64,000 nucleotides of DNA from Diphasiastrum complanatum (Eukaryota > Streptophyta > Lycopodiopsida > Lycopodiales > Lycopodiaceae): assembly GCA_029204225.1 (NCBI GenBank), contig CM055113.1:6589019-6653018 (forward strand). The letters are read 5' to 3'. The notes below the pieces were generated by a model. It ran no database searches and was not told the origin of the DNA. It saw only the letters and a list, made by a program, of their open reading frames with translations. The position numbers and the translations under genes were made by a program. Shown in pieces: positions 6,801 through 44,538 of this stretch (its first letter is position 1; every line of letters begins with the position of its first letter).

Positions 6801-6801
6801 A
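6800..6801. other. Inversion breakpoint 1 (A1 5' part joined to B1 3' part)
   Basis: Left of the point the DNA matches A (ACTCCGCTTG, as in the minus-strand copy near 37660). Right of it the DNA matches chromovirus B integrase (AGGATATGTTGAGAAC, as in the minus-strand copy near 30840). One G is shared. The complementary join is at 44538. Confidence 0.85.
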
Positions 6802-7527
6802 GGATATGTTGAGAACTTACGTGTCTCACATGCAATCCCAATGGAAAGAATACATTCCTTTAATTGATTTTGCTTATAACAGTAGAAAACATTTTGCTAT
6901 TGATTATAGTCCGTTTATGCTGATGTACGATTTTTCAACCTAGATCTTCGATAAATGTGGAGACAAAGTCTGTTAAGATCCAAAAAGTTGCAAATTTCTT
7001 GCATGATATGCGTAAAATGTTGCAAGTGGCCCGTGACTGTATCGAGTGCTCAAGATAGAGCTAAGCACTGTGCCGATCTTAAAAGGTCTCCCAGAAATTT
7101 TAAAGTTGATGACTGGGTATATTTCAGAATAGCTGAGGATTCTAAGACTATGAGTACAAGGAAGCATTATAAATTGTCTACGAGATATTGTGGACCATTT
7201 CGAATTATAAAGAAAATTGGTTCTTTAGCTCACAAACTAGACCTTCAGAACAAAACTACAGCTCACCTTGTGTTTCATGTAAGTTGTTTGAAATTAAGTT
7301 TACATGAAGGTGACATAGTTAGTTTAGAGGAAGATCTTACCCATTTGGAAGACTCATTGCTTAGTGTTCCTTTGGAACCTGAAAAGGTACTCAAAACCAG
7401 AGATAAACAATTGAGAATTCATTCTATCTTTGAGTGCTTGATCAGGTGGAAGGGACAAACTGAGGACGATGATTCATGGGAGAGGGTCGAAAGCATAAAG
7501 AAGAATTTCTCTAGGTTTCATTTCTAG
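6801..7527 (+). pseudogene. Chromovirus B1 integrase C-terminal half with chromodomain
   Basis: The segment starts in the integrase core after the QTERTNQ region (now at 44.54 kb). It continues through AYNSRKHFAIDYSPFMLMY, a basic region, the GPFRIIKKIGSLAHKLDLQ C-terminal domain and a C-terminal chromodomain (FECLIRWKGQTEDDDSWE, about 7427-7485). Chromodomains on Ty3 integrases are the defining trait of chromoviruses and are thought to steer insertion to particular chromatin. A TAG near 6941 and a frameshift around 7050 break the upstream part; the last 150 codons are open. The terminal stop is followed by a polypurine tract and the LTR at 7555. Confidence 0.88.
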
Positions 7528-7554
7528 AGATAGAAATGGATTAAGGGGGAAAAA

Positions 7555-8040
7555 TGTTATGTCCATGTCCTGTACAAGGGAATCAGAATAATTCCTGACG
7601 TGGATAGCCGGTCACTCCAACTGTATGCAGTTAATAGTTATGTTACATCATTCCGGATGTGGTCGTACTAGATAATTAATAATCATATGAGGGCCCAGAC
7701 CTATAATTGGACATAGGAGCACATGCATGGTGAAGACTGCTTTAATGCAAGAATAGGAGGTCAATAGCTCAATTCAGGTTGCATGGGGATCCTAAAGGAA
7801 ATATTCTCTCTCTTGATCAGAATAAGTCTAGTGGAAACTCGCCCATTCTCCTATTGTGAATTGTGATTCTTGAGCCAGTTTCTCCTCTCCTCTCTTGTGT
7901 TCTTCACTATGGCTTAGGGGTGGATTGGTTAGGGTATTGCCTAGCCTTTCCATATTGGTTGGGTGGTTCATGCTCCACAGGTGTCCTTTTGGTTTGCATG
8001 TGATTGGAATCTTGAAGATCTTCACATGGTGGTTCTTACA
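7555..8040 (+). repeat. 3' LTR of chromovirus B1
   Basis: The LTR starts TGTTATGTCCATGTCC immediately after the purine run AAGGGGGAAAAA and ends GGTTCTTACA, so it has TG...CA ends and is 486 bp. Two further LTRs of the family are at 58858-59338 (+) and 29627-30111 (-), which fix both ends. No partner 5' LTR survives beside the B1 gag at 48 kb. Confidence 0.88.
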
Positions 8041-8310
8041 TGGAGCTTCAGAATTCTCTACAAAGGTTAGTTGTGGCAAAAAACCAAAATTTTGATGTCT
8101 GCGAGGGATGTGGCCTTGATTTTGCTATTCAGGATCCTAGGAACCTTCGTTGAGGGTCTTAATTTGCAAGGTAACTCTCGCGAAACTAATCCTCCCACCT
8201 CAAAATTTCTCCCCACAATACATACAAAAGAAATTTTGAGAAAACAACAAATCTAACAATAATCATGCTAAGCAAACCTCAAAAATCCAATTTTTGGTAA
8301 AAAAGAAATG
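8041..8310. other. Noncoding flank of B1
   Basis: This DNA lies just past the LTR end. Nothing in it is recognisable as coding, RNA or repeat, and it differs from the sequence after the LTR at 59338. Confidence 0.4.

Positions 8311-11189
<2,879 letters not shown>

Positions 11190-11261
<72 letters not shown>
11190..11261 (+). repeat. (GA)n microsatellite
   Basis: About 36 uninterrupted GA units. The minus-strand open frame across it is a Leu-Ser repeat and not a gene. Confidence 0.95.
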
Positions 11262-11268
<7 letters not shown>

Positions 11269-12082: not shown

Positions 12083-12719
12083 TGTGAAAGATTCAACTAG
12101 TTTGATCATATTTGCTATATTTTCATATTTGGCATATTGAAGCCAACTTTGTTTTTAGACTTAGAGATTGACTTTTCAAAGTTCATTACTCTAAATGTCA
12201 TTTGAATAGATACTTTTTGAAAGTGTGGGAAAGTTAGAAGGCGAGTTTTAGTAGATTCAAATTTGAATGTTGGGTACTTTGAATCTAGACCCAAAAATAG
12301 TAGGGTTAGCATTTTGGACAGAAAGCCAAGTGGCCAAATGGGGTTTGGACATGTTATAAAAGAATGTAACTCAAGGAGAGAGTGATCTTCTCTCTTCTCT
12401 ATCTCATTTCATGCCTAAACATGGTTCTCTTGGGTTCTATTATCCATACTTGTGATTGCATGCAATTTTATGTGTAGAATGATCTATATTTGTTATTTTT
12501 GGATCCACACATGTGAAATATAGTAGCTCGCTGGTTTTGTATGGACAAAAATAGTACTTTATCATTTCATTTAAGTTTTATCAAGTTCTATTAGTGTTTT
12601 CATCTCATTTTGTGTGTAGATGCTGATTTTTTTACATTGGTGAGATTGGTAGTGTATTTCTCTTTCTAACCAAAAATCTTTCAAGTTGATTTGATCTTAA
12701 TGATATGAAAACTTTCACA
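12083..12719 (+). repeat. copia1 5' LTR
   Basis: 637 bp, TGTGAAAG to CTTTCACA. A TATA-like TTATAAAAGA near 12354 is followed by the segment shared with the 3' LTR (TATCATTTCATTYA). The 3' LTR lacks about 330 bp from the middle of this sequence. Confidence 0.92.
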
Positions 12720-12731
12720 TGGTATCAGAGC
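12720..12731 (+). other. copia1 primer-binding site
   Basis: TGGTATCAGAGC directly abuts the LTR and is complementary to the 3' end of plant initiator-Met tRNA, the usual copia primer. Confidence 0.92.
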
Positions 12732-13286
12732 TTGTGTCTCAGGTTATGAAGGAGGAAATCAGATCTATCAATGATTTGGTGAAGATATCAAGGCTAGAGC
12801 ATGCTAGAGGGGATTCTACACCAAAATCAAGTTTTTTTGCTTTTGTAGATTGGATCTTTTGTAGATTAATTCCCTAAATAGGTTTACAAACTTGATCAAT
12901 TTTGATTTTTGACTTCACATACTGGATTTGGCCAATTTTTGGATCATCAGATTATCCTAAGTGGTGGCTATTGCATAATCAAAATTTCAGCATGTGCATG
13001 TAGATTTGGAATAATCAATCTTTTGTGATTTTGACAAAATTCTAATTTGGATTAGATCTCTAGATAGTGAGGTTGCTGGACTTCATTTGAGTGTGTTTCA
13101 ATATTAGGAAGTGGCAAAAGTCATTAGATTGAGGATAGATCATAGGTTGATCAAGTTTCCATGATTCTATGTGTTGATTTGCTTGGTATAAGTGCTAGAA
13201 GAGAATTTGTGAGATAGTTTCAAATCTTGGTGATATATTTTGAAAGCATTGAAACAAGTTGAAAAAGAAGATCAGGTCATTGGTAC

Positions 13287-14150
13287 ATGGCAACCTCAAT
13301 TGGAGTCATGTTGGAAGCCAATGATAGGCTTACCTCAAGCAACTATTCATAGTGGAAATTGAGGATGGAGTCACTTCTTGAGATGAACGATGTTTTGGAT
13401 ATTGTTGTAGGTTTGGAGGAGAGACCAGAAACACAACAAGATCAAGTAAGGTATGACAAGAGGGCCAAGAAGACTCTACACATGATAAAGATGAATGTTA
13501 CCAATGAGCTTCTCGAGGAAGTTGGTAAGTGCACATCATTTTTGGAAGCTTGGAATTCATTGAAGAAGCTTTATGAATCCAAGTCTACTTCTAGAGTGTT
13601 GACTCTAAGAAGGAAAATCTTTTCTTGTTTGCAAAAGAATGAAGAAAATCAAAGTACTTTTGTTTTGAGGATGAAAGTATTGAATGATGAGTTGGCTTGC
13701 ATTGATGAAAGAATTAAGGAAGGAGAGCTTATTTAAGTGATTCTTAATGGCTTGTTGGAAGCTCATGCTAACATTGCTCAAAGTATTGCTATTTAACAGA
13801 CTTTGTCAAGTCTGATGGATCTTAAGAGATCTTGATCAATGAAAAATATACGCTTAAAGCAAGAGGTGGATCTACATCGACACTTCAAGAGGATGCTATG
13901 TTCACAAAGGGCAAATTCAGTGGCAAAACCAAAAGTAAGTGGTCTAAAAGGCAAGATCAATTTGATGCTTCTTCAAGTGGCAAAAAGAAAGATAGATCAA
14001 AGCTTAAGTGTTTTTATTGTGGCATCAAAGGACACTTTGCAAGTGAGTGCTACAAGAAGAAGAGAGATCAAGGAAACAAGCAAGGTAATCTTACTCTTGA
14101 TGAGGATGGTTTGGATGTTCAAGATGCAAATGATGATGCTTTTGTGATGT
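13287..14150 (+). pseudogene. copia1 gag
   Basis: The likely start is the ATG at 13287 (MATSIGVMLEANDRLTSSNY). A TAG near 13353 interrupts the frame just before WKLRMESLLEMND, a copia gag hallmark. Further stops lie at about 13735 and 13796 and a frameshift lies near 13832. The nucleocapsid zinc knuckle CFYCGIKGHFASEC (CX2CX4HX4C) is intact at about 14010-14050. Between LTR and gag there is a leader of about 560 bp without a gene. Confidence 0.9.
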
Positions 14151-14179
14151 CTTCATGTATGCTTGCTAATGATGGAGAT

Positions 14180-14452
14180 CTAGATCCTTGGTGTATTGAT
14201 AGTGAAGCAAGTTCACACACGACCTTTTACAAAGAGTACTTCACTTCTTTGTTGGCATATGGAGATGACAAGAGGGTGATCTGCACGGCCAATGATGGTG
14301 AGTGTGCAATCAAAGGGATTGGCACAATTCCTATTTTTCTGTCTACAAATAGGAATGTTCATTTGGAGGATGTCTTGTTTATTCCATCTATTACCAAGAA
14401 TTTGCTTAGTCTGGATCAAATGCTAAGTAAAGGCCTTCAAGGTGGAGTTTGA
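14180..14452 (+). pseudogene. copia1 protease
   Basis: WCIDSEASSH (about 14192-14220) stands where copia proteases have D-S-G-A-S/T; the glycine after Ser is Glu, which should abolish activity. The downstream region up to FIPSITKNLLSLDQM matches the usual end of protease, after which the frame shifts. A related fragment lies at 31800-32050. Confidence 0.85.
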
Positions 14453-15370
14453 TGGAGATGCTTGTATGATCAAAAGGAAGGATGTCTTGATTGGAAAAGG
14501 TAAAAGACAAGGGAAGTTGTTCAAACTAGATGCTTGTGTTATTGCTAACCAAGTTGGATGTGTTGCACGGGAGCAAATACCTATTCAAGAGGTTTTGCAT
14601 AAAAGGATGGGACACCTCAACTTCAAGCCATTGGAGGTAATGGCTAGGATGAAGATTGTGATAGGTCTTCCAAGTTCTTTAAGTGGCATCAAACATGTTT
14701 GTGAGTCTTGTACTTTGTCTAAGTCACATAGACTACCTTATACTAGATCTATATCTAGACCTACAAAGCCTTTTCAACTTGTACATTCGAATATTCATGG
14801 ATTTACTACAATTAGCAATAATGGATCTAAGATGTATGTAACATTCATTGATGATTTTAGTAGATTTTGTTGGATCTATCTACTAAAGAGCAAGGATGAA
14901 GTGTATGATGTCTTTATCAAGTTCAAGAATGCAAGGGAGAACAATTTTCCACAAGGATCAAGTGCTTAAGGAGTGACAATGGTTTTGAGTACATATCTGC
15001 CAAGTTCAAGGCCTTTTATGATGAGCATGGGATCAAGAGGGGAGGTTAAGTTCTAATCTTGACAAATCATTTTGGGATCAAGCTTTTTTGTGTGTCAATT
15101 GCTTGTGCAATAGGTGGCCGAGTGTTATTTTGAATGGAAGGACACCTTTTGAGATGCTATTCATGAGGAGGCCGAGTGTCAACTTTCTAAGAACCTTTGG
15201 ATGCACATGTTATGTCAACATTACTCTTGATGATAGGACCAAGGAGGATCCATCTTCAAGAAGAGGTATTTTTGTTGGATATAATGAGGTGAGTAAAGCC
15301 TACAAGGTTTACATTCCTTCTACTAACAAAGTGATTGTTGGTAGAGATGTCATCTTTGATGAGGGGAACA
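14442..15370 (+). pseudogene. copia1 integrase
   Basis: The zinc-binding region (HKRMGHLNF ... CESCTLSKSHR; HHCC type) is followed by the core. The first catalytic Asp region reads HSNIHG, with Asn where copia elements have Asp; the nearby FIDDFSRFCWIYLL is conserved. The frame breaks near 14969, and part of the core, including the D35E segment, is missing around 15040-15085. The C-terminal part resumes at 15088 with NGRTPFEMLF and GCTCYVNI, and ends around VIVGRDVIFDE. It would have inserted element DNA into the genome. Confidence 0.88.
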
Positions 15371-17141
15371 TTCCAAAAGTGTCTTCAAGCATGATTGATG
15401 GTAGTGTGGATGGATCTAACATTCTTGATGTTGATGAAAAGGATCCTACTTTGGATGGTGATGATGATGGACCTTCATCAAGTCAAAAGCCAGGGAGAAC
15501 ATCAAGGGAAAGACAAGTACCTTCAAGGCTCACATATGATCAAAAGGGTAAGCAGGTAGTTTCTGGATATTATGTTGCTTTACTAAGCTCTTTGGATGAG
15601 CCTACAAGTGTAGATCAAGCAAGGGAAGAAGAGGATTGGATCCAAGCAATGGATCTTGAGTATCAAGCTCTTATGAAGAATGGAACAAGGAGATTGGTGG
15701 AGTTGTCTAAGGACAAGAAAGCTATTGGATGCAAATGGATCTTCAAGGTAAAAACAAACCAATATGGATCTATCAACAAGTACAAGACAAGGTTAGTGGC
15801 AAAAGGATATGCTCAACAACAAGGGATTGACTATGATGAGACCTTTGCACCCGTGGCAAAGATGGTAAGCATTCGAGTCATCATTTCACTTGCTACACTT
15901 TATGGATGTGATCTATGGCTAATGGACATTTCAAATGCATTCTTGAATGGTGATCTTGAGGAGGAAGTGTACATGGAGCAGATCGAGAGCTACATTTCAT
16001 CAACAAAGCCAAATCATGTGTGTCTACTACAAAAGAGCTTGTATGGTCTTAAGCAAGCACCAAGGAGTTGGTATGCTAAGCTTAACACTTTTTTACTCTT
16101 TCAAGTCTTTGTTATGAGTGAGTATGATCATTCACTTTATTATAGGTTTGCCTAGAATGATGTTACCATATTGCTAATCTATGTGGATGATATCATCTTG
16201 AGTGGTGGAGTCAATCAAGATGTGGAGGATATCAAGAGTGCTCTTAGGAAGGAGTTTGAAGTGCATGATCTTGGTAATTTGCATTACATTTTGGGAATAG
16301 AAGTCATTAGATCTTCTCAATCTACTTTCATTTGTCAAGAGAAGTATGCTAATTCTATTATTTAAAAATTTCATATGGTAGATGCAAAAGCTAGTGATAC
16401 ACCTATGGAGTCTCATGTAAAGCTAACTATAAGAGGTAATGAAAGATCGTTCAAAGACATTACTCTCTATAGGAAGATAGTTGGTTCACTCATCTATCTA
16501 GCCATTACTAGACCAAATCTAAGCTATTGTGTTGGAAGATTGAGTCAATTCATGCAAGATCCTAGTGAGGAGCATTGGAACCTAAAGCAAGTTTTGAGGT
16601 ACATCACTGGAATTCGAGATTTTGGCATATTGTATGAGGGACTCTCACTTGATCTTTTTGGATTTTCAGATTCAAACTATGCTGGAGATGTAATGGATAG
16701 GAAATGCTCATTGTATTTTCATAGGTGATGGAGCTATATCATGGATGTCGAAGAAACAAGCCACTATCTCATTGTCATCTAGTGAGGCCGAGTACAAAGC
16801 TCTTACACATTGCACAAAGGAGGTGGTATGGATCAAGAGGATAATCAAGGATATTCACTTGCTGGATTTTTTAGAGAGCCCAATCCTCTTTTCTGACAAT
16901 CAATCAGCCCAAAGATTGGCAACCAATCCTATCTTTCATGCTAGGAGCAAGCATATTGAGGTATGAGATCATTTTGTGAGGGAGCAACTCATTACAAAGG
17001 AGGTGGAGCTTCAACATGTGTCTTCAAGGGAATGTGTAGCTGATATCTTGACCAAAGCATTGGGAAAGGACTTGTTCATGAAGTATAGGACATCACATGG
17101 AGTGTTATCAAAGTCTATGCTAAAACTAGTTGAAGAGGGAG
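15371..17141 (+). pseudogene. copia1 reverse transcriptase and RNase H
   Basis: Copia RT blocks occur in order: WKWIFK-type GCKWIFKVKTN, ARLVAKGY-type TRLVAKGYAQQQGIDYDETF, DISNAFLNGDLEEEVYM, QAPRSWYAKL, and the catalytic LIYVDD at about 16174-16191. Stops occur near 16153 and 16363. RNase H follows from 16375 with GSLIYLAITRPNLSY and later LSSSEAEYKALTHCTKEVVW, with a frameshift near 16728. The tail (ADILTKALGK) runs to a polypurine-like AGAGGGAG just before the 3' LTR. Confidence 0.92.
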
Positions 17142-17405
17142 TGTGAATGATTCAACTAGTTTGACCATGTTTGCTATATTTCCATATTTGACATATTGAG
17201 GCCAGCTTTGTTTTTAGACTTAGAGATTGACTTTTCAAATTTTGAAAGCAACAATACTTTATCATTTCATTCATGTTTGATCAAGTTCCTTTAGTGTTTG
17301 TATCTCATTTTTTTTCTCTACATTGGTGAGATTGGTAGTGTATTTCTTTTTCTAACCAAATATCTTTCAAGTTCATTGGATATTAATGATCTGAAAACTT
17401 TCACA
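17142..17405 (+). repeat. copia1 3' LTR, internally deleted
   Basis: 264 bp against 637 bp for the 5' LTR. Both ends match; about 330 bp are missing after GACTTTTCAAA, with a smaller loss near 17310. Confidence 0.9.
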
Positions 17406-17602
17406 CATCCACCTCCACAATTCCTCCTCACACCGTCAACCTCGTTGATCTTCTGGAGGTACATAAGCACTAGTACCAAAAAGTATTTTCAGTGCCTGAT
17501 TCTAAATAGTCGGACCGCTTTGTCAAGCAATATCCTAATATCAAGACAAAGGGTGGCTATAAATTACTATTAGAAATCAATGATAAACTTCATTGTTATT
17601 GT
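17406..17602 (+). pseudogene. ORF-X copy 5 (X5), start of C-terminal domain
   Basis: This continues the frame broken at 12082 (Pro/Thr-rich, then SDRFVKQYPNIKTKGGYKLL). The FxKxYP...GGY pattern matches X4 (FAKKYPTTKERGGYILPD), X2 (FLKQHPHESSRGGWVLKF) and X3 (FERNYSPNMRGG). Two stops are present. It ends at copia2 and resumes at 28701. Confidence 0.68.
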
Positions 17603-21527: not shown

Positions 21528-22730
21528 TGTAGTGCAGGCATCCCAAAGGGAGCCGGGAACCACGACTTAGCTTCCCAGCCTTCAACTCTTGCCATCCAAA
21601 CCCACTTGACATACAAGCAGCCAACTTGCCAACAACGATCAGACTTAACCAGCTTAAAGTTTTGAAAACCAACATTGAGATCCAACCTGGCGCCATGCCA
21701 GATCGGGAGTCCCGATGTGGGTGGCTTCCCTCCAAGCAAGCCGCCCGACATACATCAAACTTAGCCAACTCGAAGCTTCGTTACAAACGAGTAACATCCA
21801 TTCCAAGCAAGCGATCTGACTTACATTAGACTTAACCACATGAAAGCTTCGTCATGAGCACTGGAAGCATGCCAGACTGGATAGCCATAAACAGGTAACT
21901 TCCACCCAAGCAAGCCATCCAACTTAGCCGACAGGTTAGAGCCTGTTTCCCAAGAGCTTAACCCATTCACGTTCATGCAAGGAACACTCAGAACCACAAG
22001 CCGCGACAGATATAGAGACAACCAGTTCCTGGACAAAATGGTCCCGACAGCATCCCGCTGGTGCCAGGACCGAATGGTCTCGACGGCATACCGCTGGCGT
22101 CCCGGGATACGACCCTCAGCTATGTGCCAACTTAAAAATTTTGAAGCGGCCTTACAACTGGCACTTTTACCGAACACTGAAACCCAGAAGGTAATCAGAG
22201 TCAATTTGAAAAAAATCCCACTTTATTGATAAATCTGAGAAGGTTATATTTCAAGTGTGTGACCAACCCTAGTCTCCGGGGCGCTAGCATGCCAAGGCGA
22301 GAGCCATGACAACATTCCAGCAAGGGAGGCTGAGACTTGGTTGGAGCTCGCCCTGAGTCGCAACCCGCACTCCCCTATAGTATTGGTGGGATTCGGCACC
22401 CCCCTCATACCAAGCACTCTACCCAGGCTGGTAAAACACATTTTTCTCTCTCTAGGATTTTCTCTTTCTAGAAAGTCATTTTCTCTCTCTAGATTTTATT
22501 GATCCCCAGGCTTACTTTATCCATGCCTAGATCGTGTGAGGTGATTGCACATCGATCTGAGCTCTCTGGACTTCGCTAGAACCGATCAAAAATTTTCAGC
22601 CATAAGAACTTGGCGCCGGCTGGATTCTGGTCACAGTGGCGCCGGGAGCAGCAGGGGCGCTGCTGGCGCTGAGGACAATGCTGGCGCCAGTGACGCCAAA
22701 AGTAAAGCTTGTAAAGGTAGCTTTACAACA
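21528..22730 (-). repeat. 3' LTR of the small nested element
   Basis: 1203 bp. On the minus strand it starts TGTTGTAAAGCTACC and ends GCACTACA. It contains about 360 bp (roughly 21880-22255) absent from the partner LTR. A cluster of TGGCGCC-like motifs lies near its start (22610-22695). Confidence 0.88.
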
Positions 22731-22862
22731 TCCACCCCACCTTTATAAAATCTGATGTCCTTATCAGATGTCAGAGCACAACAATTGTCTTGATGAACCC
22801 CAAACCGTGGCCATTTTCGTGAGATCCGCATAGCTGACCGGCCAGTCGGCTCTGATACCACA
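22731..22862 (-). other. Interior of the small nested element: polypurine tract and primer site
   Basis: AGGTGGGGTGGA (minus) abuts the 3' LTR. TGGTATCAGAGCC (minus; plus coordinates 22848-22860) lies two bases from the 5' LTR and matches initiator-Met tRNA. No open frame of any size is present. Confidence 0.88.
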
Positions 22863-29390: not shown

Positions 29391-29626
29391 TGTCTCACCA
29401 CCTAGTATCCTTTTCAAAAAAAAAAATAAGTCCCAGAAAAACATCAAGGGACACACTTTTAATTTTCTTTTTTTTCATTGTTAGTTCATTTTCTCTTTCT
29501 TATTTTTCCTTTATTTAATTGTATATACGCTTTCTTTGTTTTCCCCCCTCTCGACCTCAATTTTGCCACCACACATTTTTTCCTAACTTTTCATCGCATC
29601 TTTTCCCCTCTGGTCTATACTTCTTT
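29391..29626. other. T-rich noncoding stretch
   Basis: Pyrimidine-rich DNA without gene or recognisable LTR start, between X5 and the chromovirus LTR. Confidence 0.4.
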
Positions 29627-30111
29627 TCTAAGAACCCCAAGTGAAGACCTTCAGAATTCCAATCGCATGCAAAACAAAAGGACACCTGTGGAGCATGAAC
29701 CACCCATCCAACATGGAAAGGCTATCAATACCCTAACCAATCCACCCCCAAGCCACTATGAAGAACACAAGAGAGGAGAGGAGAAACTGGCTCATGAATC
29801 ACAATTCACAATAAGAGTACGGGCGAGTTTCCACTAGACTTATTCTCCTCAAGAGAGAGAGAATATTCTCTTTAGGATCCCCATGCAACCTAATTTGAGC
29901 TATTGACCTCATATTCTTGCATTAAAGCAGTCTTCACCATGCATGTGCTCCTATGTCCAATTATAGGTTTGGGCCCTCATATGATTATTAATTATTTGAT
30001 ACGACCATGTCCGGAATGACGTACATAACTAATAACCACATACAAATGGAGTGACTAGCTATCCATGTTAGGAATTATTCCGATTCCCTTGTACAGGACA
30101 TGGACATAACA
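29627..30111 (-). repeat. Chromovirus B2 3' LTR
   Basis: On the minus strand it begins TGTTATGTCCATGTCC after GGGGGGAAGAA and ends near GGTTCTTAGA (the family end is TTCTTACA). About 485 bp, matching the LTRs at 7555 and 58858. Confidence 0.86.
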
Positions 30112-30124
30112 TTCTTCCCCCCTT

Positions 30125-31040
30125 AATCCATTTCTATCTCTAGAAATGAAACCTAGGGAAATTCTTCTTTATGATTTCGACCCTCTCCCATGAATCATCA
30201 TGCTCAGTCCGTCCCTTCCGCCTGATCAAGCACTCAGAGATAGAACAATTTCTCAATTGTTTATCTCTAGTTCTGAGTACCTTTTCAGGTTCCAAAAGAA
30301 CACTAAGCCATGAGTCTTCTAAATGGGTAAGATCTTCCTCTGAACCAACTACGTCACATTCATGTAAACTTAATTTTAAATAGCTTACATACAACACGAG
30401 GTGAGTTGTAGTCTTGTTCTAAAGATCAAGTTGGTAAGCTAAAGAACCAATTTTCTTTATAATCCGAAATGGTCCACAATATCTCGTAGACAATTTATAA
30501 TGCTTCCCCTGTACTCATAGTCTTAGAATCCTTAGGTATTCTAAGATATACCCAATCATCAACTTTAAAATTTCTGGGAGACCTTTTAAGATTGGCATAG
30601 TGCTTAGCTCTATCTTGAGCACTCCTGTTACAATCACGGGCCACTTGCAACATTTCACGCATATCATGTAAGAAATCTGCAACTTTTTAAATCTTAGCAG
30701 ACTTTGTCTCCACATTTATCGGAGATCTAGGTTGAAAACCATACATCAGCATAAATGGAATATAACCAGTAGCAGAATGTTTTCTACTGTTATAAGCAAA
30801 GTCACTGAGATTGCCTGTGAGACACATAAGTTCTCAACATATCCTCCATAGTCTGATTAGTTCTCTCAGTCTGGCCATCTGATTCAAGATGATCAGAATA
30901 TCTAAAACTAAGCAAGGTTTCAAGCTTATGGAATACAATTGACCAAAAGTGACAATAAATTTAGGATCTCTATCACTAACTATATCACTTGGTAGTCCAT
31001 AAAGCCTAAATGATCTTTCCACACAGGTCAAGTTCTTATG
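30125..31040 (-). pseudogene. Chromovirus B2 integrase C-terminal part and chromodomain, 5'-truncated
   Basis: Reading on the minus strand it starts abruptly in the integrase core (RLYGLPSDIVSDRDPKF, about 31020-30950). It runs through the QTERTNQT-equivalent region and the basic domain to the chromodomain (SECLIRRKGRTEHDDSWE near 30180-30230). Several stops and shifts are present. It is the unbroken reference showing what B looks like across the point where B1 is cut (near 30840). Confidence 0.85.
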
Positions 31041-33049: not shown

Positions 33050-34188
33050 TGGACAAACCTAGAGCAAGGCTTTAAACCAAACCTAGAGCATCACCAGAAT
33101 CGATAGTTGTGGAGGCGGTAGCAGCAGGAGGACCTGATGGTACTGTCCTTGGTAGGCGTGGAATAGGTGTGAGTACTTCTTCTTCTTCAAAAATGTCTTC
33201 TTCTTCAAATCTCTCAGGCACTTTGGCATCAAACTGTTTCGGTGATTTCACAGCCTTGTCGACCCGAAGTGCGGCTGGGCTATCTTCCGTGTGAGGTGGC
33301 TGGCAGACATCTTCAACAGCAACAGTAGATTCATGGATATGTCCGAATCCTCTTCCAAGGGATTGGAGTTCAAAGGGCGCAGGGCTCTGGGGCATTTCAA
33401 AAATTTCAGTGGCCCCAAGGGGGTCGAAATCATCGAACATATCCATAAAGAACTGTGTGTTTGGTGAGGTGGCTTTGGTGTGTGGGGGTGAGGCGGCCTG
33501 GGCAGCTGTGATGGGAATGGTAGGCCCAATGGTCAAAAACTGTCCTTGAATAGAAGCAGAGGCGAGGGAAGCATCACAGGCTGGGGGAATGGAAATTTTA
33601 GTGCGAACAACAGCAGGGGGTGGAAGCGTAACTGACGAGGTATGTCTAGTGCGACGTCGTGACACGGAAAATCCTATGGAGAATCTGTGATGTGATGCGA
33701 TCTTTCTTGAGGTTGCCAACAATCAAGAAATTGTTCAGTAGCTGGGCAGCAACATGGATTGAAGGCTCAATGATGGCTTTCAAAAGGTAGCCGTCATTGG
33801 TCTAGTGCAGATCGTTGGTGAGTTCAATATATGGCTTGATGGCCTGTTTGGCGTGCTTGTAATTGGTTGAGGCCTGCGTGCCGGATGCTATACCTATAGT
33901 TGCAAGGGCGGCCTCAGTGACGCGCACCTTGTGTGTGGCTCCCTAGAAAGTGATATAAAATTTAGATTTCTCTTCCTTCCATGTACTAAAGGCAAGAGTG
34001 ATAAATTCCATATTGATGCAACCAGAAAAGACTCTCTCATGAATACCCATTGCAGTGAGCAAAGGCTTCGCAAGGGTCATCCACTGAGTGACCATGCTTG
34101 TGCTAGGAAGGATCATGATGTCCGTTGCAGATAGGACATCAAGATGGATAGTATAGCGCTGAGACTGGGAACTATCGGTAGAAGACAT
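33050..34188 (-). pseudogene. ORF-X copy 1 (X1), N-terminal half, after A2 pol
   Basis: The start ATG is at 34188 (MSSTDSSQSQRYTIHLDVLS). The N-terminal domain follows (LTAMGIHERVFSGCINMEF; FYITFQ; IIEPSIHVAAQLLNNFLI). Compared with X2, about 260 bp covering the YNWFKTISGEL segment are deleted. A Pro/Ser-rich acidic linker continues to about 33060, where the sequence is cut next to the 1-kb repeat. X1 is very similar to 39960-41360. Function unknown. Confidence 0.7.
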
Positions 34189-34970
34189 GATGATCAGAAA
34201 GGAAATATAAAATACGTAAATGTGTCTCAGAAAGCAGTGCGGGAATTTTGGAAGGCTTTTGTCATGGTAAAAATTCGCAAGAGCTTCGCTAGCACAAGTG
34301 AGAAATGAATCAAATTCAGTCAACTTATAGGTGAATTTGGTGGGTCCATTACACTGCATACTAGTTTGGCTGATCACGTCTGAACAAAAATTTGCAAGCA
34401 TGTACAGTACTATGATAATAGGGTATAAAAATCTTGGTGAAGTTTCTGGGGATCTGAACCTATCATGCGAACATTTTTCAGGCTTGACAAAGGATGAACC
34501 TTCGCCCAGGAGGGTCCTTCGCCCAAGTACTGTCATAAATGTATTTTTTCAAGACCTGAACCAATGGACAACCTAATTTTGACATTTTAAAATCATCTAA
34601 CAGGTCGGCGAAGGTTAATAATGAGGTTAAGATGCTCTGCAAAGGTTCTGGACAGGGACCTTCGCCCACCTCAAATTAGATAAATCTAGAGTGGATGTAC
34701 AGTTTGAGAGCTCAACGAAGGTTTTTGGTACTGAATATGCTAAATCTGACCAAAACCGTGATTTTCTAAGTCTTTTTCCATCAAAAAATTATTGTGCTTC
34801 CTTTCCTATGCTGATGACTTTCTGACTTTTGCTCATCAGTCTTTTCTCAATTCAATAATTTTTTTTTTAACTGTCTTCTTCCAATAAACTCAGCAAATTG
34901 AGTATTGAGACAAAAAATTGGAAAACAAATAAAATTAAAAAAACCATTGAGATAAACTTGCTGAACTGGC
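34189..34970 (-). promoter_or_regulatory. A2 spacer between integrase and ORF-X with ACCTTCGCC motifs
   Basis: Noncoding. Copies of ACCTTCGCC/GGCGAAGGT and close variants lie near 34497, 34517, 34603, 34638 and 34670. A TATA-like TTTTTATACCC (minus) lies near 34425, about 240 bp before the ORF-X ATG. The arrangement repeats at 41361-42150, so it is a fixed part of the family. Confidence 0.55.
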
Positions 34971-36200
34971 AGAGCAAGCTGCCAAAACTTGCATAAGCGG
35001 TTGCCATTCACCAGAGTATCAAATCGTTTTCCATCCTAGTGCTCAAGAATTATTGCGCCATAGTTCAAGATTTCCTTCACTTTATACGGGCCTTCTCCCG
35101 TAAATTTCAAATTGCCCTCGATCAGCTTGCCCTCGATCAGCTTGGTTTTGTACATTAATGCAAGATCTCCTGTTTTTGAATCTTTTTTGTGGAATCGGTA
35201 ATCGTTTCATGCCTTGCGACGGGCATTATCTACTGCTAAGGCATAAACTGCCATCAATCGGGTTTCACATGATTTGTGCAACGCTTCATGACGGAGTTGT
35301 AAAGATGTATCATCATTTAATCGTTCGGTGGCCGCTATGCATAAAGATGGGATTAAAAATTCAATTGGCATAATAGCATCTTGACCATAAACCAGTTGAA
35401 AAGGTGTTTGATTTGTACTATTTTTGTAAGTGATTCTGAATGCCTATAATGTTGCATACAGTTTATGTTCCCAATCAAACCGACTCGCTTCAACTGTCTT
35501 TGTCATAATGGTGCAAAGAATCTTATTGGAAGATTCAGCTTCGCCATTCCCTCTAAGATATTAGGGAGTACAAGATCTGTGTATAATAAAAAAATCTTCC
35601 AGTAAACACTTTATTGTTTGATTAACAAAGTGTGTACCCCGGTCACTGACAATATTGATCGAACATCCAAATCTGATGATAATATTTTCATATAGAAACT
35701 TGGTCGTAGATTTCGCATTAATAACTTTGGCAACTTTGGCTTCAACCCACTTGGTCATGTAATCAGTTGCTATGATAATGTATCAAGTCTGAGATCCTTG
35801 CGTGGCAGGGTGAATAGGTCCAACATATTCCAATCCCCATTTTTCAAACGGTGTTTGCAATAAAACCGGATGCAAGGGTTCATAGTTCTGTTGAGTAGGT
35901 CGTCGTGCTCGCTAGCAAACATCACATGTCCGAATAAAATTTATGTGTCCTTGTGAAGCGTAGGCCACCAACAACCTGATTGTAAAAGTTTGTGAACAGT
36001 AATATCTATAGAGAAGTGTCCTCCACTCATGCCATCATGTGAAAACATGATTAAATCTGGTACTTCATGCGGTAAAACACACCTTCATAAAATATTATCT
36101 GATCCACGACGATACAATTGTCCTGCAATTAATTGATAAGGTTGAGCCTTATGAATCAATTGTCTCTTCTGTACTTTTGTCAGGGAGTCATTTGGTTGTT
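34971..36200 (-). pseudogene. A2 integrase
   Basis: Blocks recognisable on the minus strand: a zinc-binding remnant, MTKWVEAKVAKVINAKSTTK, a core with IIRFGCSINIVSDRGTHF and the C-terminal GPYKVKEILNYGAVILEH-type segment near 35050. Stops and frameshifts are frequent and the longest frame is only 65 codons. No chromodomain. It ends just before the ORF-X spacer. Confidence 0.82.
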
Positions 36201-36700
36201 AGCATCAAGTACTCAACAATATTTGCTGCCCACTCAGGTATTGCTTCAACATAGAATAACGCAGCATCTAGCAATTCATCATCCACTTCAGTGTAAACTG
36301 GTGCGGATTCGATTCGCGAAATGTGATCGGCTAGATAATGTTGTTTCCTCTTTCGAACTACAATTCAAAAGTCAAATTCAGTCAATAACAATAACCATCT
36401 TGCAATACGTCCAGTATTGCACGTCTTGTTTACCAAGTTAAGTAACGGTTGATGATCCGTATAAAATGCAAAGTGCGTTTCCATGAGGTAGTGATGAAAT
36501 TTCCAAACAGAATAAATCATGGCCAATGCTTCACGTTCTGTTGTTGAATAATTCTTTTCTGGATCTGTAAGCTGTTTGTTTGCAAATCGTATAGGATAAT
36601 CCTTCTTATAGTCAACTCGTTGCGTCAAAACTGATCCAATGGCGTATTTTGAAGCATCGGTATGAACATGAAATTCTATCATCCAATCTGGGGAACGTAA
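36201..36700 (-). pseudogene. A2 RNase H
   Basis: 105 open codons with FHVHTDASKYAIGSVL, TEREALAMIYSVWKFHHYLM, FYTDHQPLLNLVNK and RIARWLLLLTEFDF: a complete Ty3 RNase H core with its acidic residues. Confidence 0.9.
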
Positions 36701-37560
36701 TATTAGTGCTGAAGTTAATGCTTTTTTAAAAAAATTTCAAAGACTTCTAAAGCTTCTACTGTCCAGATAGGAACAATAGTCAATTTGTATATAGGTCGTG
36801 CTAAATCCGCAAAGAGGATAATAAAGATTCGATAGTAGTTCGCATGACCCATAAATACGTAAACTCCACGAATTGTTGCTGGCGATGGCAATTCCACAAT
36901 AACTTTGATCTTGGAATAATCTGTGGCAATACCATGTCTTGATATCACATGTCCAAGCACAACTCCGTGGAAAACCCATATCTGACATTTTTCTGGATTA
37001 AGAGAAATCTGATATTTGCGACATCTTTCAAATACTTTTTCCAATCGATCCAGGTGGTCTGTATATGTACTATGAACTCCCAAGTCGTCCAAGTAAATTT
37101 CAAGAAATTTCTGCAGATAATCTTTAAAAGCAAATTGCATTAGTCTTTGGAATGAACTTGGTGCATTACAGAGTCCAAATGACATTGCTTTGTAAGCATA
37201 GGTGTCCCATTTTGTTGCAAAAGCAGTTTTGTGGCAATCGGCAGGTGCGATCTTAACCTAGTTGTAACCACTAAATCCATCCAGAAAACTATAAGCTTCT
37301 GCTCCGGCTAGGCGATCCAAAAAGCTTTTAGTAAAAGGTAATGGAAAGTGATCCTTCCGGTCACTTTGTTCAACGCTTTGAGGTTCACACAGATCCTCAA
37401 TTTCCCATTTTTCTTAGGAACAATGACAATCGATAAAATCCATTCAGTATGTTCAATCTCATAAATAAAATCGGCGTTAAGGTATCTCTGAAGTTCTTTC
37501 TTTATCAGATCCGCTACATTAGGATTACAGCGATAGAACTATGTAACCTTTGGAATTGCA
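36701..37560 (-). pseudogene. A2 reverse transcriptase
   Basis: The open part (156 codons from 37185) holds MSFGLCNAPSSFQRLMQFAF, the catalytic EIYLDDLGVHS (near 37083-37100), NPEKCQIWVFHGVVLGHV and RGVYVFMGHANYYRIF. The N-terminal RT blocks between 37185 and 37560 are present in other frames with stops. Confidence 0.88.
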
Positions 37561-38041
37561 TCAAGTAATAAAGGTATGGTATGTTCAGTCACTGATGTTG
37601 GAATACCCTTCAAATCTTGATAAGTCCATGCAAAACAATTTTGATACTTAATAAGTAACAAGCGGAGTGTTTGATATTGTTCAGGAGTAAGTTGTGATCC
37701 AACTTGTACAATCTTTTCCGGTTCTCCTGGCTCGGCAAGATTCATTGACTGCATTTTAGCTGGGCCATTGTAAACTTCTTTAGATTTCGACATGTATTCT
37801 TCAGATTCACGATGTGCTTTAGGTAACATGATAACCACATCATCCAGTGTATAACGTTTAAAATGCTTGGACATATCATGCTGGACTACGTTTGCTTGTT
37901 CTTTTTCAAAAGGACTTGCCTTGGATCTTCGTTTAGCCTTCTTAGCAGGAATTGATCGTGGAGGTGATGACTTTCGAGATGATAAATCTTTTTTCAAAGG
38001 TGAAGACTTCCTAGATGATGATGTCTTACTAGAAATAGCAA
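37561..38041 (-). pseudogene. A2 linker before RT, starting at an LTR
   Basis: An open stretch with KRYTLDDVVIMLPKAHRESE and LLLIKYQNCFAWTYQDLKG links protease to RT. It is the unbroken reference across the point where A1 is cut (near 37655). The sequence begins abruptly at 38041, at the end of the X2 LTR, so gag and protease of A2 are missing. Confidence 0.82.
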
Positions 38042-38441
38042 GGACATTCATCAATGCATTTCTGAAGAGAACCAATCTGCTTTATTGAAATGAGACAATA
38101 AACATGAGGAGCAATTTGAGTTGGTCCCTTCTTATAGTAGAGAGGAGGACCTTGGCCTCTGAATCCTATTGGTCCAGTCTTGTGTCTCTTTTTATTCAAA
38201 TTTAAAAAAGTTTGGGAACCATCAAAATTGGAGGGAAATCCAACTTTATTCACTAACTTGACATTTAGGCCCTACGACATTAAAAGTCCCGCAAAAAGGC
38301 CTAAAGTCCTTTTAATGAATTTTAACTAATCAATCAAATAACTATGTGATCATCGAGTTGGACTTACACACGCAGGTGCCAAATCCCTCTCACTTATTAT
38401 CTAGGATTAGGATTGCCTTGGGATCCGCAAACCCTCCAACA
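38042..38441 (-). repeat. LTR between A1/X2 and A2
   Basis: On the minus strand it starts TGTTGGAGGGTTTGCGG right after AGTTTTGGTGGGGGATAC, a good polypurine tract. It has a TATA-like CTACTATAAGAAGG near 38135 and AATAAA signals near 38200 and 38090. It ends at about 38042, where A2 begins. No second copy is in the window, so the inner boundary is inferred. Confidence 0.6.
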
Positions 38442-38460
38442 GTATCCCCCACCAAAACTG
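38442..38460 (-). other. Polypurine tract of A1/X2
   Basis: AGTTTTGGTGGGGGATAC on the minus strand lies between the end of ORF-X2 and the LTR start. Confidence 0.6.
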
Positions 38461-38499
38461 GTGGCTGTCCCACGACACCTGCAATATGCAGTTATTGGA

Positions 38500-41360
38500 G
38501 ACTTTTATTGGCTTCACACCGAATCTTGATTAAATGGTATTGCACCTTCTCCATAAAGTCGAGGCATGCAGTATTAAAATCCAAATTGTGTGGCAAAAAA
38601 CAATGGTGGGCTCCGCAATCCACTTGGAGGTTGTCCATGATGTGAAGCATGATTTCCAAGAGCCTCCCATCATTGTCTCATGAAAATATAAACGAGCAAC
38701 TGGCAGCTGGTCTTTGATTTGCTCTAGGGCCATCGGCTTATTTGGATCGAATGCCAGAGGAGGGAGATAATCGTCCCATCGGGTTGCCACTGACGCCAAC
38801 AGAGTTAGATCTTTAGCAAACATTGCAAATTGTCGCACTGTTGGATCTGGAGAGTGGACATATTCTCTCTGATAGGCTTGTAAGGCACGGTGAAAATCCA
38901 CTGAGATTGTCCAATTGTGGGACTGATGGATGATTGGCCAATTGGGTGTATGGATGGTGATCTTGTCCACAGCCAACCCCAAATCTTTCCATTTATTTCT
39001 TCACGGCATTGGCACGTAATAGGAATCTACCCGCAATTGGCGAGGGTTGGCGACGTAACTCCTAATTGATGCCAAAGTTTTTTCGAAAACAATGATTCTC
39101 CATGCCGGTTGCTCTCCCAATGCAGGTATTCAATCCAACTCTTTGTCGGCCTCTATCTCAGAGGTCTTAAACTTCAGAACCCATCCACCACGCGAGGACT
39201 CATGCGGATGTTGCTTTAAGAAGGTCTGGATCTGGTCCTCGACGTTGATGGGCCTTCTAAATAGAGGTGTGGTCCTTGATGAGGATGGACCTGCTTGTAC
39301 TGCCGGTAAGATTGGTGGTGGTTCGGCGATATCTGGAGCTCCCCCCTGGTTCATGCTCGAATCTACCCCTATATCCATTGGTACGGGGATTCGTGGTCCA
39401 GTTTCCAACACTTGAGCGGCTGCTTTTTCATAGGCGATGATGGTCTCTTTAGCCTTTGCCAACTCGGTTGAAGCTGCTCCTTTGAACCTGTCAAAGCGGC
39501 CTTGAAATCCCTGAAGGGCCACTTTGTATGTCTCCACTTTCTTGAACAAATACGCAATCTCCGTCGGTGTGACCAAATGATCTAGTATTTGTATTTGAAG
39601 ATACGCATCTAGTTCAAGGGTGGTCGCATCCAATTCACCCTGAAGCCACATGCGATCTTGTTCGACCATCTGTAATTGACCCTTCAGTAGCTGCACCTGT
39701 TGCTTTGCATCCTACACGGCCTTATCCACCTGATCTTGTGCAGTTGTCAGGGTGTTTTGCAGGGAGCTGATGTAGTCTTCCAAGCGATCAGCTTGTTGCT
39801 GGGCCAACTTCTTTTCGGCTTCAGCCTTGTCTTCATGCTGTTTGGCAATCTTTAATTCTCGATCCAGCTGGACAAGTTTCTGGCTGATCAGAGTGTTTTC
39901 GGACCCCATCTTGGAGATTCTCTACTCCATTTCCTTCTTCTTATCCAGCATAGATTGGATCACTTGTGCAAGGCTTGAAACCAAACCTAGAGCATCGCCA
40001 GAATCGACGGTCATGGAGGTGACAGCAACAGGACGACCTGATGGTACTGTCCTTGGTAGGCATGGAATAGGTACTAGTACTTCTTCTTCTTCAAAAATGT
40101 CTTCTTATTCAAATCCCTCAGGCACTGTGGCGTCGAACTGTTTCGGTGATTTCACAGCCTTGTTGACCCGAAGTGCGGCTGGGCTATCTTTCGTGTGAGG
40201 TGGCTGGCAGACATCTTCAACACCAACAGTAGATTCATGGATATGTCCGAATTCTCTTCCAGAGGGCTTTGCGGCATTTCAAAAATTTCAGTGGCCCCAA
40301 GGGGGTCGGAATCATCGAACATATCCATAAAGAACTGTGTGTTTGGTGAGGTGGCTTCAGTGTGTGGGGGTGAGGCGACCTGGGCAGCTGTGATGGGAAT
40401 GGTAGGCCCAATGGTCACAGACTGTCCTTGAATGGAAGCAGAGATGAGGGAAGCATCATAGGCTGGGGGAATGGGAAGTTCAGTGCAAACAACAGAAGGG
40501 GGTGGAAGCACGACTGACGAGGTATGCCTAGTGCGACGTCGTGACGCGGAAGGCGAGTCAAGAATAGCGATCTCGCTGCGTCGACGATGACAACTATGAG
40601 AACTCGAGGCCTGGTGAGATGACTCTACCGGTGTTTCTTCGTAGACCGAAAGCATGGAATCTAGGTGGAAGCCATGGATTCTGTTTTCTAAGTGAGAAGC
40701 GGCTAAAAGGGACAATAAAGAGCCAGCAGCGAACTGCTGCTTAGTATTGGCCTTAATAGCTCGTTTGAGCTCACCAGAAATAGTCTTGAACCAATTATAT
40801 GGTTCAAGAGGGGTTTTGGCCAACTTGGTGTGGGACTCCACTATCCTATGGAGGATCTGTGATGTGATGTGGTCTTTCCTGAGGTTGCCAACCATCAGGA
40901 AGTTGTTTAGTAGCTGGGCAGCAGCGTGGATTGAAGGCTCAATGATGGCTTTCAGAAGGTAGTCGTCATTGGTCCAGTGCAGATCGTTGGTGAGGTCAAT
41001 ATATGGCTTGATGGCCTATTTGGCGTGCTTGTGATTGGGTGAGGCCTGCGTGCCAGATGCTATACCTATAGCTGCAAGGGCAGCCTCAGTGATGCGCATC
41101 TTGTGTGTGGCTCCCTGGAAAGTGATATAAAATTTAGATTTCTCTTCCTTCCATGTACTAAAGACAAGAGTGATAAATTCCATATTGATGCGACCAGAAA
41201 AAGCTCTCTCATGAATACCCATTGCAGTGAGAAAAGGCTCCGCAAGGGTCATTCACTGAGTGACCATGCTTGTGCTAGGAAGGATCATGATGTCCATTGC
41301 AGATGGGACATCACGACGGATAGTATAGCACGGAGACTGGGAAGTATCGGTAGAAGACAT
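38500..41360 (-). pseudogene. ORF-X copy 2 (X2), nearly full length, third ORF of A1
   Basis: About 940 codons on the minus strand from the ATG at 41360. The N-terminal domain runs about 41360-40690 (a TGG-to-TGA stop near 41255; NMEFITLVFSTWKEE; IIEPSIHAAAQLLNNFLM; YNWFKTISGELKRAIKA). A Ser/Pro-rich acidic linker extends to about 39990, and a coiled coil spans about 39960-39480 (ELKIAKQHEDKAEAEKKLAQ). The C-terminal domain, about 39250-38600, has FLKQHPHESSRGGWVLKF, RVDSYYVPMP, NWPIIHQSHNWTISVDFH, WDDYLPPLAFDPNKPM and PVARLYFHETMM. Five or so stops and one frameshift break it. The layout recalls plant-transposon proteins found beyond integrase in some Ty3 elements, but I cannot assign a family. 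Confidence 0.75.
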
Positions 41361-42150
41361 AATGATCAGAAAGGAAATATAAAACGCGTAAAAGTGTCTC
41401 AGATAGCAGTGCAGAAATTTTGGAGGCTTTGGTCGTGGTAAAAATTCGCAAGAGCTTCGCTAGCACAAGTGAGAAATGAATTGAATTTAGTCAACTTATA
41501 AGTGAATCTGGTGGGTCCATTACACTGAATACTAGTTTGGCTGATCAGTTTTGAACGAAAATTTGTAGGCATGTACAGTACTGTGATAATAGGGTATAAA
41601 AATCTCGGCGAAGGTTTCTGGGGATTTGAACCTATCAAGCGAACATTTTCCAGGCCTGGCGAAGGATGAACCTTCGCCCAGGAGGGTCCTTCGCCCAGGT
41701 ACTATCATAAATGTAGTTTTTAAAGACCTGAACCTATGGACAAAAATTTGTTATTTTTGACTTGGAAAAACATCAAGTATAAGGGAATCAGAATTTAGGA
41801 TTTTAAATCATCTTAACATTTTAAGATCATCTAACAAGTCGGCGAAGGTTAATAATGAGGTTAAGATGCTCGGCAAAGGTTTTGGATAGGAACCTTTGCC
41901 CACCTCAAATTAGATAAATCTAGAGTGGATGTACAGTCTGAGAGCTCAGTGCAGGTTTCTGATACTGAATACGCTAAATCTGACCAAAACAATGATTTCT
42001 AAGTCTTTTTCCATCAAAAAATTATTGTGCTTCATTTTCTATACTGATGACTTTCTGACTTTTGCTCATCAGTCTTTTCTCAATTTAATAAATTTTTTTA
42101 TTTTAACTATCTTTTTTCAAAAAACTTAGTAAAAAATTAAAAAACAAATA
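41361..42150 (-). promoter_or_regulatory. A1 spacer between integrase and ORF-X with ACCTTCGCC motifs
   Basis: Close copy of 34189-34970. ACCTTCGCC/GGCGAAGGT motifs and variants lie near 41606, 41655, 41670, 41687, 41841, 41872 and 41900. A TATA-like TTTTTATACCC (minus) near 41596 precedes the ORF-X ATG by about 240 bp. Noncoding otherwise. Confidence 0.58.
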
Positions 42151-42153
42151 AAA

Positions 42154-43085
42154 TTAAAAAAACCATTGAGATCCAACTTGCTGAATTGGTGGAGCAGGTT
42201 GCCAAAACTTGCGTAAGAGGCTGCCATTCACCGGAGTATCAAATCGTTTTCCATCCAAGTGCTCAAGAATTACTGCGCCATAGTTCAAGATTTCCTTCAC
42301 TTTATACGGGCCTTCCCCGATAAATTTCAACTTACCCTTGATCAGCTTGGTTTTGTACATTAATACAAAATCTCCTGCTTTCAAATATTTTTTGTGCAAT
42401 CGGCGATCGTGCCATGCCTTGCGGCGGGCTTTCTCTGCTGCTAAGGCATGAACTGCCATCAATCGGGTTTCACATAATTTGTGCAACGCTTCATGGTAGA
42501 GTTGTAAAGACGTATCATCATTTAATCGTTCGGTGGCCGCTATGCGTAAAGATGGGATTAAAAATTCAATCGGCATGACAGCATCTTGACCATAAACCAG
42601 TTGAAAAGGTGTTTGATTTGTACTATTTTTGTAAGCGGTTTTGAATGCTCATAATGCTGCATACAGTTTATGTTCCCAATCAGACCAACTTGCTTCAACT
42701 TTCGTTGTCATAATGGGGCAGAGAATCTTATTGGAAGATTCAGCTTGGCCATTCCCTCTGGGATACTAGGGAGTACTAAATCTGTGTATAACAAAAAAAT
42801 CTTCCAGTAAACACTTTATTGTTTGATTAACAAAGTGTGTACCCCGGTCACTAACAATCTCGATCGGACATCCAAATCTGATGACAATATTTCATATAGA
42901 AACTTGGCCATAGATTTCGCATCAGCAACTTTGACAGCATTGGCTTCAACCCACTTGGTCATGTAATCAGTTGCTACGACAATGTATCGGGCTTGAGATC
43001 CTTACGCGACAGGGTGAATAGGTCCAACATAATCCAGTCCCCATTTTTCAAACGGTGCTTGCAATAAAACCGGATGCAAGGGTCT
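42154..43085 (-). pseudogene. A1 integrase, C-terminal two thirds
   Basis: 140 open codons at the end (MPIEFLIPSLRIAATERLND through GEGPYKVKEILNYGAVILEH) plus core pieces upstream. Compared with A2, about 180 bp covering the zinc-binding region are deleted at about 43085. No chromodomain. Confidence 0.82.
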
Positions 43086-43610
43086 GGTACTTCATGCGGT
43101 AAAACAAACCTTCATAAAATATTATCTGATCCACGACGATACAATTGTCTTGCAATTAATTGATAAGGTTGAGTCTTATGAATCAATTGTCTCGTCTGTA
43201 CTTTTGTCAAGGAGTCATTTGGTTGTCCTAGCATCAGGTACTCAACAATATCTGCTGCCCACTCAGGTACTACTTCAACATAGAATAACACAACATCTGG
43301 CAATTCAACATCCACTTCAGTGTTAACTGGTGCGGATTCGATTTAAGAAATGTGATCGGCTAGATAATGTTGTTTCCTCTTTCGAACTACAATTCGAAAG
43401 TCAAATTCAGTCAATAACAATAACCATCTTGCAATACGTCCAGTATTGCACATCTTGTTTACCAAGTAAAGTAATGGTTGATGATCCGTATAAAATACAA
43501 AGTGCATTTCCATGAGGTAGTGACGAAATTTTTGAACAGAATCATGGCCAATGCCTCACGTTCTGTCTCATGTTGGAGAACGCAATATTAGTGCTGAAGT
43601 TAATGCTTTT
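43086..43610 (-). pseudogene. A1 RNase H and connection, deleted
   Basis: The RNase H core (MEMHFVFYTDH-equivalent and RIARWLLLLTEF) is recognisable near 43400-43520. About 130 bp of its first half are missing near 43567, where CGTTCTGTCTCATGTTGG joins sequences separated in A2. Confidence 0.75.
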
Positions 43611-44538
43611 TTAAAAAAATTTCAAAGGCTTCTAACGCTTCTACTGTCCAGATAGGAACAATATTCAGTTTGTATATAGGTCATGCTAAATCCGCAAAGA
43701 GGATAATAAAGATTCGATAGTAGTTCGCGTGACACATAAACACATAAACTCCACGAATTGTTGCTGGCGGTGGCAATTCCACAATAACTTTGATCTTGGA
43801 ATAATCTGTGGCAATACCATGTCTTGATATCACATGTCCAAGCACAACTCCGTGGAAAACCCATATCTGACATTTTTCTGGATTAAGAGAAATCTGATAT
43901 TTGCGACATCTTTCAAATACTTTTTCCAATCGATCTAGGTGGTCTGTATATGTACTATGAACTCCCAAGTCGTCCAAGTAAATTTCAAGGAATTTTTGCA
44001 GATAATCTTTAAAAGCAAATTGCATTAGTCTTTGGAATGAACTTGGTGCATTACAGAGTCCAAACGGCATTACTTTGTAAGCATAGGTGTCCCATCCTGT
44101 TGCAAAAGCAGTTTTGTGGCGATCGGTAGGTGCGATCTTAACCTGGTTGTAACCACTAAATCCATCTAGAAAACTATAAGCTTCCGCTCCAGCAAGGCGA
44201 TCCAAAATGCTTTTCTAGTAAAAGGTAACGGAAAGTGATCCTTCCGCATCACTTTGTTCAACACTTTGAGGTTCACACAGATCCTCAATTTCTCATTTTT
44301 CCAAGAAACAAAGACAATCGATAAAATCCATTCAGTATGCTCGATCTCATAAATAAAATTGGCGTTAAGCAATCTCTGAAGTTCTTTCTTTATCAGATCC
44401 GCTACATTAGGATTACAGTAGAACTTTGTAACCTTTGGAACTGCATCAGGTACTAGAGGTATGGTATGTTCAATCACTGATGTCGGAATACCCTTCAAAT
44501 CTTGATAAGTCCATGCAAAGCAATCTTGATACTTAATA
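43611..44538 (-). pseudogene. A1 reverse transcriptase, up to the inversion break
   Basis: 174 open codons from 44205 contain FLDGFSGYNQVKIAPTDRHK, MPFGLCNAPSSFQRLM and the catalytic EIYLDDLGVHS (near 43970-43990). Upstream, IYEIEHTEWILSIVFV and KYQDCFAWTYQDLKGIP run to 44538, where A sequence ends. This is the missing second half of the A1 polyprotein that stops at 6800. Confidence 0.88.
44538..44538. other. Inversion breakpoint 2 (B1 5' part joined to A1 3' part)
   Basis: On the minus strand AATCAGACTAT (B integrase) joins TATTAAGTATC (A linker) with one shared base. Compared with the unbroken copies at 30840 and 37655, about 5 bp of A and about 1 bp of B are missing across the two joins. 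Confidence 0.85.

What the first reader, a model, noticed from the sequence alone, without database searches (positions are those of the whole stretch)
6801..44538. 37.7-kb inversion with reciprocal breakpoints inside two retrotransposons
A1 (plus) stops at 6800 after TLRL and continues as B integrase. B1 (minus) stops at 44538 after QTERTNQ and continues as A, at the very next part of the A polyprotein. Flipping 6801-44538 would restore both elements at once. Unbroken A (about 37655, minus) and B (about 30840, minus) copies show the expected sequence: roughly 5 bp of A and 1 bp of B are lost, with one shared base per join. The breakpoints are not homologous to each other, so this looks like end-joining repair of two breaks rather than recombination between repeats. 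Everything from 6.8 to 44.5 kb was therefore once in the opposite orientation.
Basis: seen in the sequence. Interest (0 to 1): 0.88.

Follow-up and report, generated by a model that had tools for sequence, protein, structure and literature searches.

The report
Inversion cutting through two retrotransposons
Two unrelated jumping elements in a plant-like genome have swapped halves at two places 37.7 thousand bases apart, most likely because two breaks freed the stretch between them and it was probably healed back the wrong way round; this is a clean example of a known kind of chromosome damage.

Summary
At 6800 the 5' half of retrotransposon A (plus) runs into the 3' half of B; at 44538 the 5' half of B (minus) runs into the rest of A. 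Unbroken copies show 5 bp of A and 1 bp of B absent, one shared base per join, net loss 8 bp. With up to 3 mismatches, the unbroken A stretch occurs 1301 times and the unbroken B stretch 873 times. Join 1 occurs once. Join 2 occurs twice: here and on an unplaced contig, C3398, which matches the window at about 99.8% and is probably the other allele. So the joins are not a spreading recombinant family, and join 2 is not a one-off assembly error. A and B are not alike at the breaks, and 1-bp overlaps are ordinary by chance. One inversion by end joining of two breaks is best supported; template switching with the same product is not excluded. Reads, an uninverted allele and target-site duplications could not be examined. 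Known kind (compare a peach inversion, PMC7784018); interest modest.

The parts
2897..6800 (+). A1: 5' half of retrotransposon A (gag and following region); cut at 2897, so its 5' long terminal repeat is missing
   Evidence: Retrotrans_gag E 2.9e-9 in 3464-4354; 92-94% to genomic A copies from 2897 to 6800; those copies share further sequence upstream that neither the window nor 20 kb upstream of it holds
6800..6801 (.). Join 1, A to B, one shared G
   Evidence: 1 place in the genome at up to 3 mismatches
6801..8040 (+). B2: 3' half of retrotransposon B (integrase end with chromodomain-like region); long terminal repeat 7555-8040
   Evidence: SH3_Tf2-1 E 2.3e-16 and Chromo E 9.7e-5, below Pfam's cut-off; matches 30846-29629 and 58400-59338; repeat start 7555; 25 of 42 other genome rows end exactly at 8040
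6801..44538 (.). Inferred inverted segment
   Evidence: reciprocal joins at both ends
38034..44538 (-). A2: rest of retrotransposon A (reverse transcriptase onward); long terminal repeat cut at 38034
   Evidence: RVT_1 E 6e-22 in 43684-44214; 38034-41757 and 43574-44538 collinear with A in C8 and C3272
44538..44539 (.). Join 2, B to A, one shared T (on the minus strand)
   Evidence: 2 places in the genome: here and C3398
44539..48248 (-). B1: 5' half of retrotransposon B (gag-like, RT, RNase H, integrase core); 5' end approximate, no 5' long terminal repeat found in the window
   Evidence: RT_RNaseH E 1e-25 and RVT_1 E 4.5e-8; reading frames; integrase relatives; no second copy of the repeat on this side
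33064..38036 (-). A copy (5'-truncated) that spans the A break at 37653-37659
29616..31029 (-). B copy (3' fragment) that spans the B break at 30846-30848

Best explanation
The two hybrid retrotransposons at 6800 and 44538 are reciprocal, and they are most likely the two ends of one 37.7-kb inversion that probably arose when two breaks, one inside A and one inside B, were rejoined crosswise by end joining. Shown: each hybrid carries the half that the other lacks, cut within 5 bp in A and 1 bp in B; the pair is found only at this locus and, for join 2, on one near-identical contig. Inferred: that one event made both joins, that A and B lay in opposite orientation before it, and that the repair was non-homologous end joining of two double-strand breaks with a net loss of 8 bp. 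Both joins shift the reading frame, so neither hybrid reads through into its new half.
For: Base-level reciprocity; chance of about 3e-6 under independence. Unbroken A in 6 of 6 further copies read and 1301 stretches; unbroken B in 873 stretches; reversed-pattern controls 0. Join 1 at 1 place, join 2 at 2 places. In the 200-base search across join 1, of 40 scored matches (2982 candidates) 34 lie on the A side, 5 on the B side and only the window itself crosses. Local similarity of A and B within 100 bp of the breaks scores 18 and 17, shuffles average 17.4 with a 95% point of 22. Overlaps of 1 bp have chance frequency 0.28, of 0 bp 0.55. Stop codons follow 3 codons after join 1 and 14 after join 2.
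Against: No reads, no uninverted allele, no related accession. Join 1 rests on one assembled sequence. The target-site duplication and terminal-repeat test failed because A1's 5' end, A2's 3' end and B1's 5' repeat are missing. One 8-base word, AGTATCAA, is shared by the two joins; it lies in A on either side of the break and I take it as chance. Replication-based template switching would leave the same joins.
Confidence: 0.87

Rival explanations
1. Replication-based template switching turned the segment: a stalled copying machine jumped between the two elements and back. The product is the same inversion by another route.
For: Same product; 1-bp overlap at each join.
Against: The overlap is no longer than chance gives, no copied filler bases are at either join, and two coordinated switches are needed.
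Confidence: 0.09
2. Two chimeric elements made separately, for example by strand switching in reverse transcription, inserted by chance near each other.
For: Each join is sense to sense, as such chimeras are.
Against: Matching cut points in both elements have a chance of about 3e-6 under independence; neither chimera exists elsewhere apart from join 2 on C3398; both joins are out of frame.
Confidence: 0.01
3. Assembly error: the segment was turned by the assembler or scaffolder.
For: No reads were examined; join 1 is assembled once only.
Against: No N in the window; the joins are not in shared repeats; 8 bp are lost, which a misplaced contig would not cause; join 2 is also in C3398, with 1475 identical bases around it and real differences elsewhere.
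Confidence: 0.02
4. Recombination between inverted repeats, or transposase-driven inversion.
For: The region is full of repeats.
Against: A and B are not alike at the breaks and no extra bases or element ends lie at the joins.
Confidence: 0.01

Closest known systems
1.67-Mb inversion of flat peach (PMC7784018; passages seen)
   Same: The authors infer non-homologous end joining from joins without inverted repeats, with a 2-bp deletion and a 1-bp insertion.
   Different: Far larger, seen against an uninverted allele and tied to a trait; the passages seen do not describe breaks inside retrotransposons.
Inversions of the Brassica napus pangenome (PMC12599057; passages seen)
   Different: A survey; the passages seen give no single case dissected to the base through two broken elements.
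Alternative-transposition inversions in maize (PMC8225341; search listing and start of abstract only)
   Same: Plant inversions with molecularly described ends.
   Different: Caused by DNA transposon ends; no such ends lie at the joins here.

Membership tests
Inversion by end joining of two breaks | Two reciprocal joins | tested here: met
Inversion by end joining of two breaks | No homology between the two break sites | tested here: met
Inversion by end joining of two breaks | Little loss and short or no overlap at the joins | tested here: met
   8 bp net loss, 1-bp overlap each; chance level
Inversion by end joining of two breaks | Uninverted allele or sister genome with the other order | not testable with these tools
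   No second full-length match to window 7950-8149 among 40 scored of 1674 candidates; the matching search at 2798-2997 did not complete; the genome has no relatives here
Inversion by recombination between inverted repeats | Shared repeat at both ends | tested here: not met
Chimeric retrotransposon family from template switching | The same chimera at several loci | tested here: not met
   join 1 at 1 place, join 2 at 2 places, the second near-identical around it
Ty3/gypsy LTR retrotransposon (A) | gag and reverse transcriptase of that type | tested here: met
   Retrotrans_gag and RVT_1; closer lineage not tested
Chromovirus-like Ty3/gypsy element (B) | Chromodomain at the integrase end | tested here: inconclusive
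   Chromo E 9.7e-5, 22.7 bits against a cut-off of 25.1

The most novel reading that the evidence does not exclude
The locus is a breakage cluster: besides the two inversion joins it holds a terminal repeat fused to the middle of another A copy at 38035, an A element cut at 2897, and a 1181-bp piece of B1 (45014-46194) missing from C3398, so that repeated end joining, not retrotransposition, has been the main force shaping this nest of elements.
Probability: 0.2. Interest if true: 0.4.

Novelty: new member of a known kind. Interest (0 to 1): 0.3.

Why it matters
Old inversions in repeat-rich plant DNA are hard to prove without a second genome. Here the two broken elements act as rulers: the inversion, its ends and the bases lost can be read from one assembly and checked against about a thousand unbroken copies of each element. 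The same test could be run across a whole genome to count end-joining inversions that comparison of accessions would miss.

Tried and rejected
Target-site duplication test: B2's terminal repeat ends at 8040, but no 5' repeat of B lies on the B1 side of the window; A1's 5' repeat is absent from the window and from 20 kb upstream; A2's repeat is cut at 38034. So no pair of ends could be compared. Primer-site motifs recalled from memory gave no site for A or B above chance. Protein relatives of the A copy across its break: none at E 0.001 or better among 78 candidates. Of 175 relatives of the B1 integrase piece 120 were held; 58 have the motif at the break and 55 at least 8 residues beyond it; none has the hybrid continuation, and the tally of the next six residues shows two that depart from the usual stretch. 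The distant relative of A at about 27.6 kb covers the A break, but its two matching pieces are in different frames that meet there, so it is weak support. A scan of viral contigs for the unbroken A stretch gave 0. An earlier count said '55/58' integrases span the break; the counts here replace it. Searches for in-print cases of an inversion cutting two LTR elements: (open-access library only); I saw none in the listings, which is not proof of absence.

Full report
What is there. The window is G000:C22:6589019-6653018 of an unnamed 1.74-Gb assembly; its repeats are plant-like, which is my inference. It is a nest of LTR retrotransposons. Element A has a gag domain in 3464-4354 and a reverse transcriptase in 43684-44214; element B has reverse transcriptase and RNase H in 45185-46938 and an integrase end with a weak chromodomain match in 6955-7524.

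The joins. A1 (plus) matches an A copy up to 6800 and B sequence starts at the same base; B1 (minus) ends at 44538 and A resumes there. In the A copy five bases separate the two cut points, in the B copy one; one base at each join can belong to either side. The unbroken copies hold 7 + 3 bases between anchors, the joins 1 + 1, so 8 bases are gone. Join 1 reaches a stop after 3 codons, join 2 after 14. The halves are about equally distant from their copies: A1 95.2%, A2 94.8% over 965 bases (92.8% over the nearest 378); B1 92.3%, B2 91.7%. That fits halves of single elements but does not prove it.

Which state is older. Six further A copies in the genome run through the A break with the same five bases between. 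They come from the best matches and are not all independent: C3272 and C8 share their 5' flank at 99.7%, and both C15 copies share one internal gap. Counted over the whole assembly with up to 3 mismatches, the unbroken A stretch occurs 680 + 621 = 1301 times and the unbroken B stretch 459 + 414 = 873 times, controls 0. Relatives of the B1 integrase piece read on past the break: 55 of 120 held proteins reach at least 8 residues beyond, none with the hybrid sequence.

Are the joins unique? Join 1 occurs at 1 place. Join 2 occurs at 2: the window and contig C3398. C3398 (43.2 kb) is collinear with window 19885-45013 (27 mismatches in 25.1 kb) and 46195-61792 (28 mismatches in 15.6 kb), with 40 transitions to 15 transversions and a 1181-bp absence in B1. 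It is probably the second allele; a recent duplicate is not excluded. It starts at window 19885 and so says nothing on join 1. The 1475 bases around join 2 are identical. A 200-base search across join 1 scored 40 of 2982 candidates: 34 on the A side only, 5 on the B side only, and the window. A search at 7950-8149 found no second full-length match among 40 scored of 1674 candidates, so no other allele of the left side was seen; the search at 2798-2997 did not complete.

Mechanism. The sequences of A and B within 100 bp of the breaks are no more alike than shuffled ones, so recombination between repeats is not supported. A 1-bp overlap arises by chance in about 28% of random joins, so it points to neither microhomology-driven repair nor template switching in particular. 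No extra bases lie at the joins, which speaks against DNA-transposon ends. I infer two double-strand breaks rejoined crosswise by end joining. Template switching during replication stays possible. The orientation statement is relative: which side turned cannot be told, and anything inserted into the segment later was not turned.

Other scars. A2 runs to 38034, inside its long terminal repeat, and is fused there to the A copy at the A1 position 6423; other copies continue past that point. A1 is cut at 2897. C3398 lacks 45014-46194. These suggest repeated end joining in this nest, which is the boldest reading I keep.

Compared with what is known. Peach has a 1.67-Mb inversion attributed to end joining with a 2-bp deletion and a 1-bp insertion at its joins (PMC7784018, passages). 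In Brassica napus, Copia and Gypsy elements are the most abundant element families in inversion sequences and breakpoints (PMC12599057, passages). The present case is a new member of that known kind, notable for how fully it can be read from one assembly.

Noticed in passing
38030-38040: A2's long terminal repeat is cut and fused directly to the middle of another A copy, probably a deletion scar.
   Followed up: partly
45014-46194: This 1181-bp piece of B1 is absent from the near-identical contig C3398.
   Followed up: partly
21528-23703: Two direct repeats of about 0.8-1.2 kb with a methionine-tRNA primer-like site between them at 22849-22860 (minus), as if an LTR element had lost nearly all of its inside.
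   Followed up: no
12083-17405: A Copia-type element with degraded terminal repeats and a primer-like site at 12720.
   Followed up: no
52921-54077: Arrays of a 25-26-base repeat on a related theme (TCGGCTGAGATGG / CGTCGGTTGAGAT).
   Followed up: no
L028 (C22:6579019-6589018), window-relative -5396 to -5237: A short piece of the B long terminal repeat lies upstream of the window.
   Followed up: no
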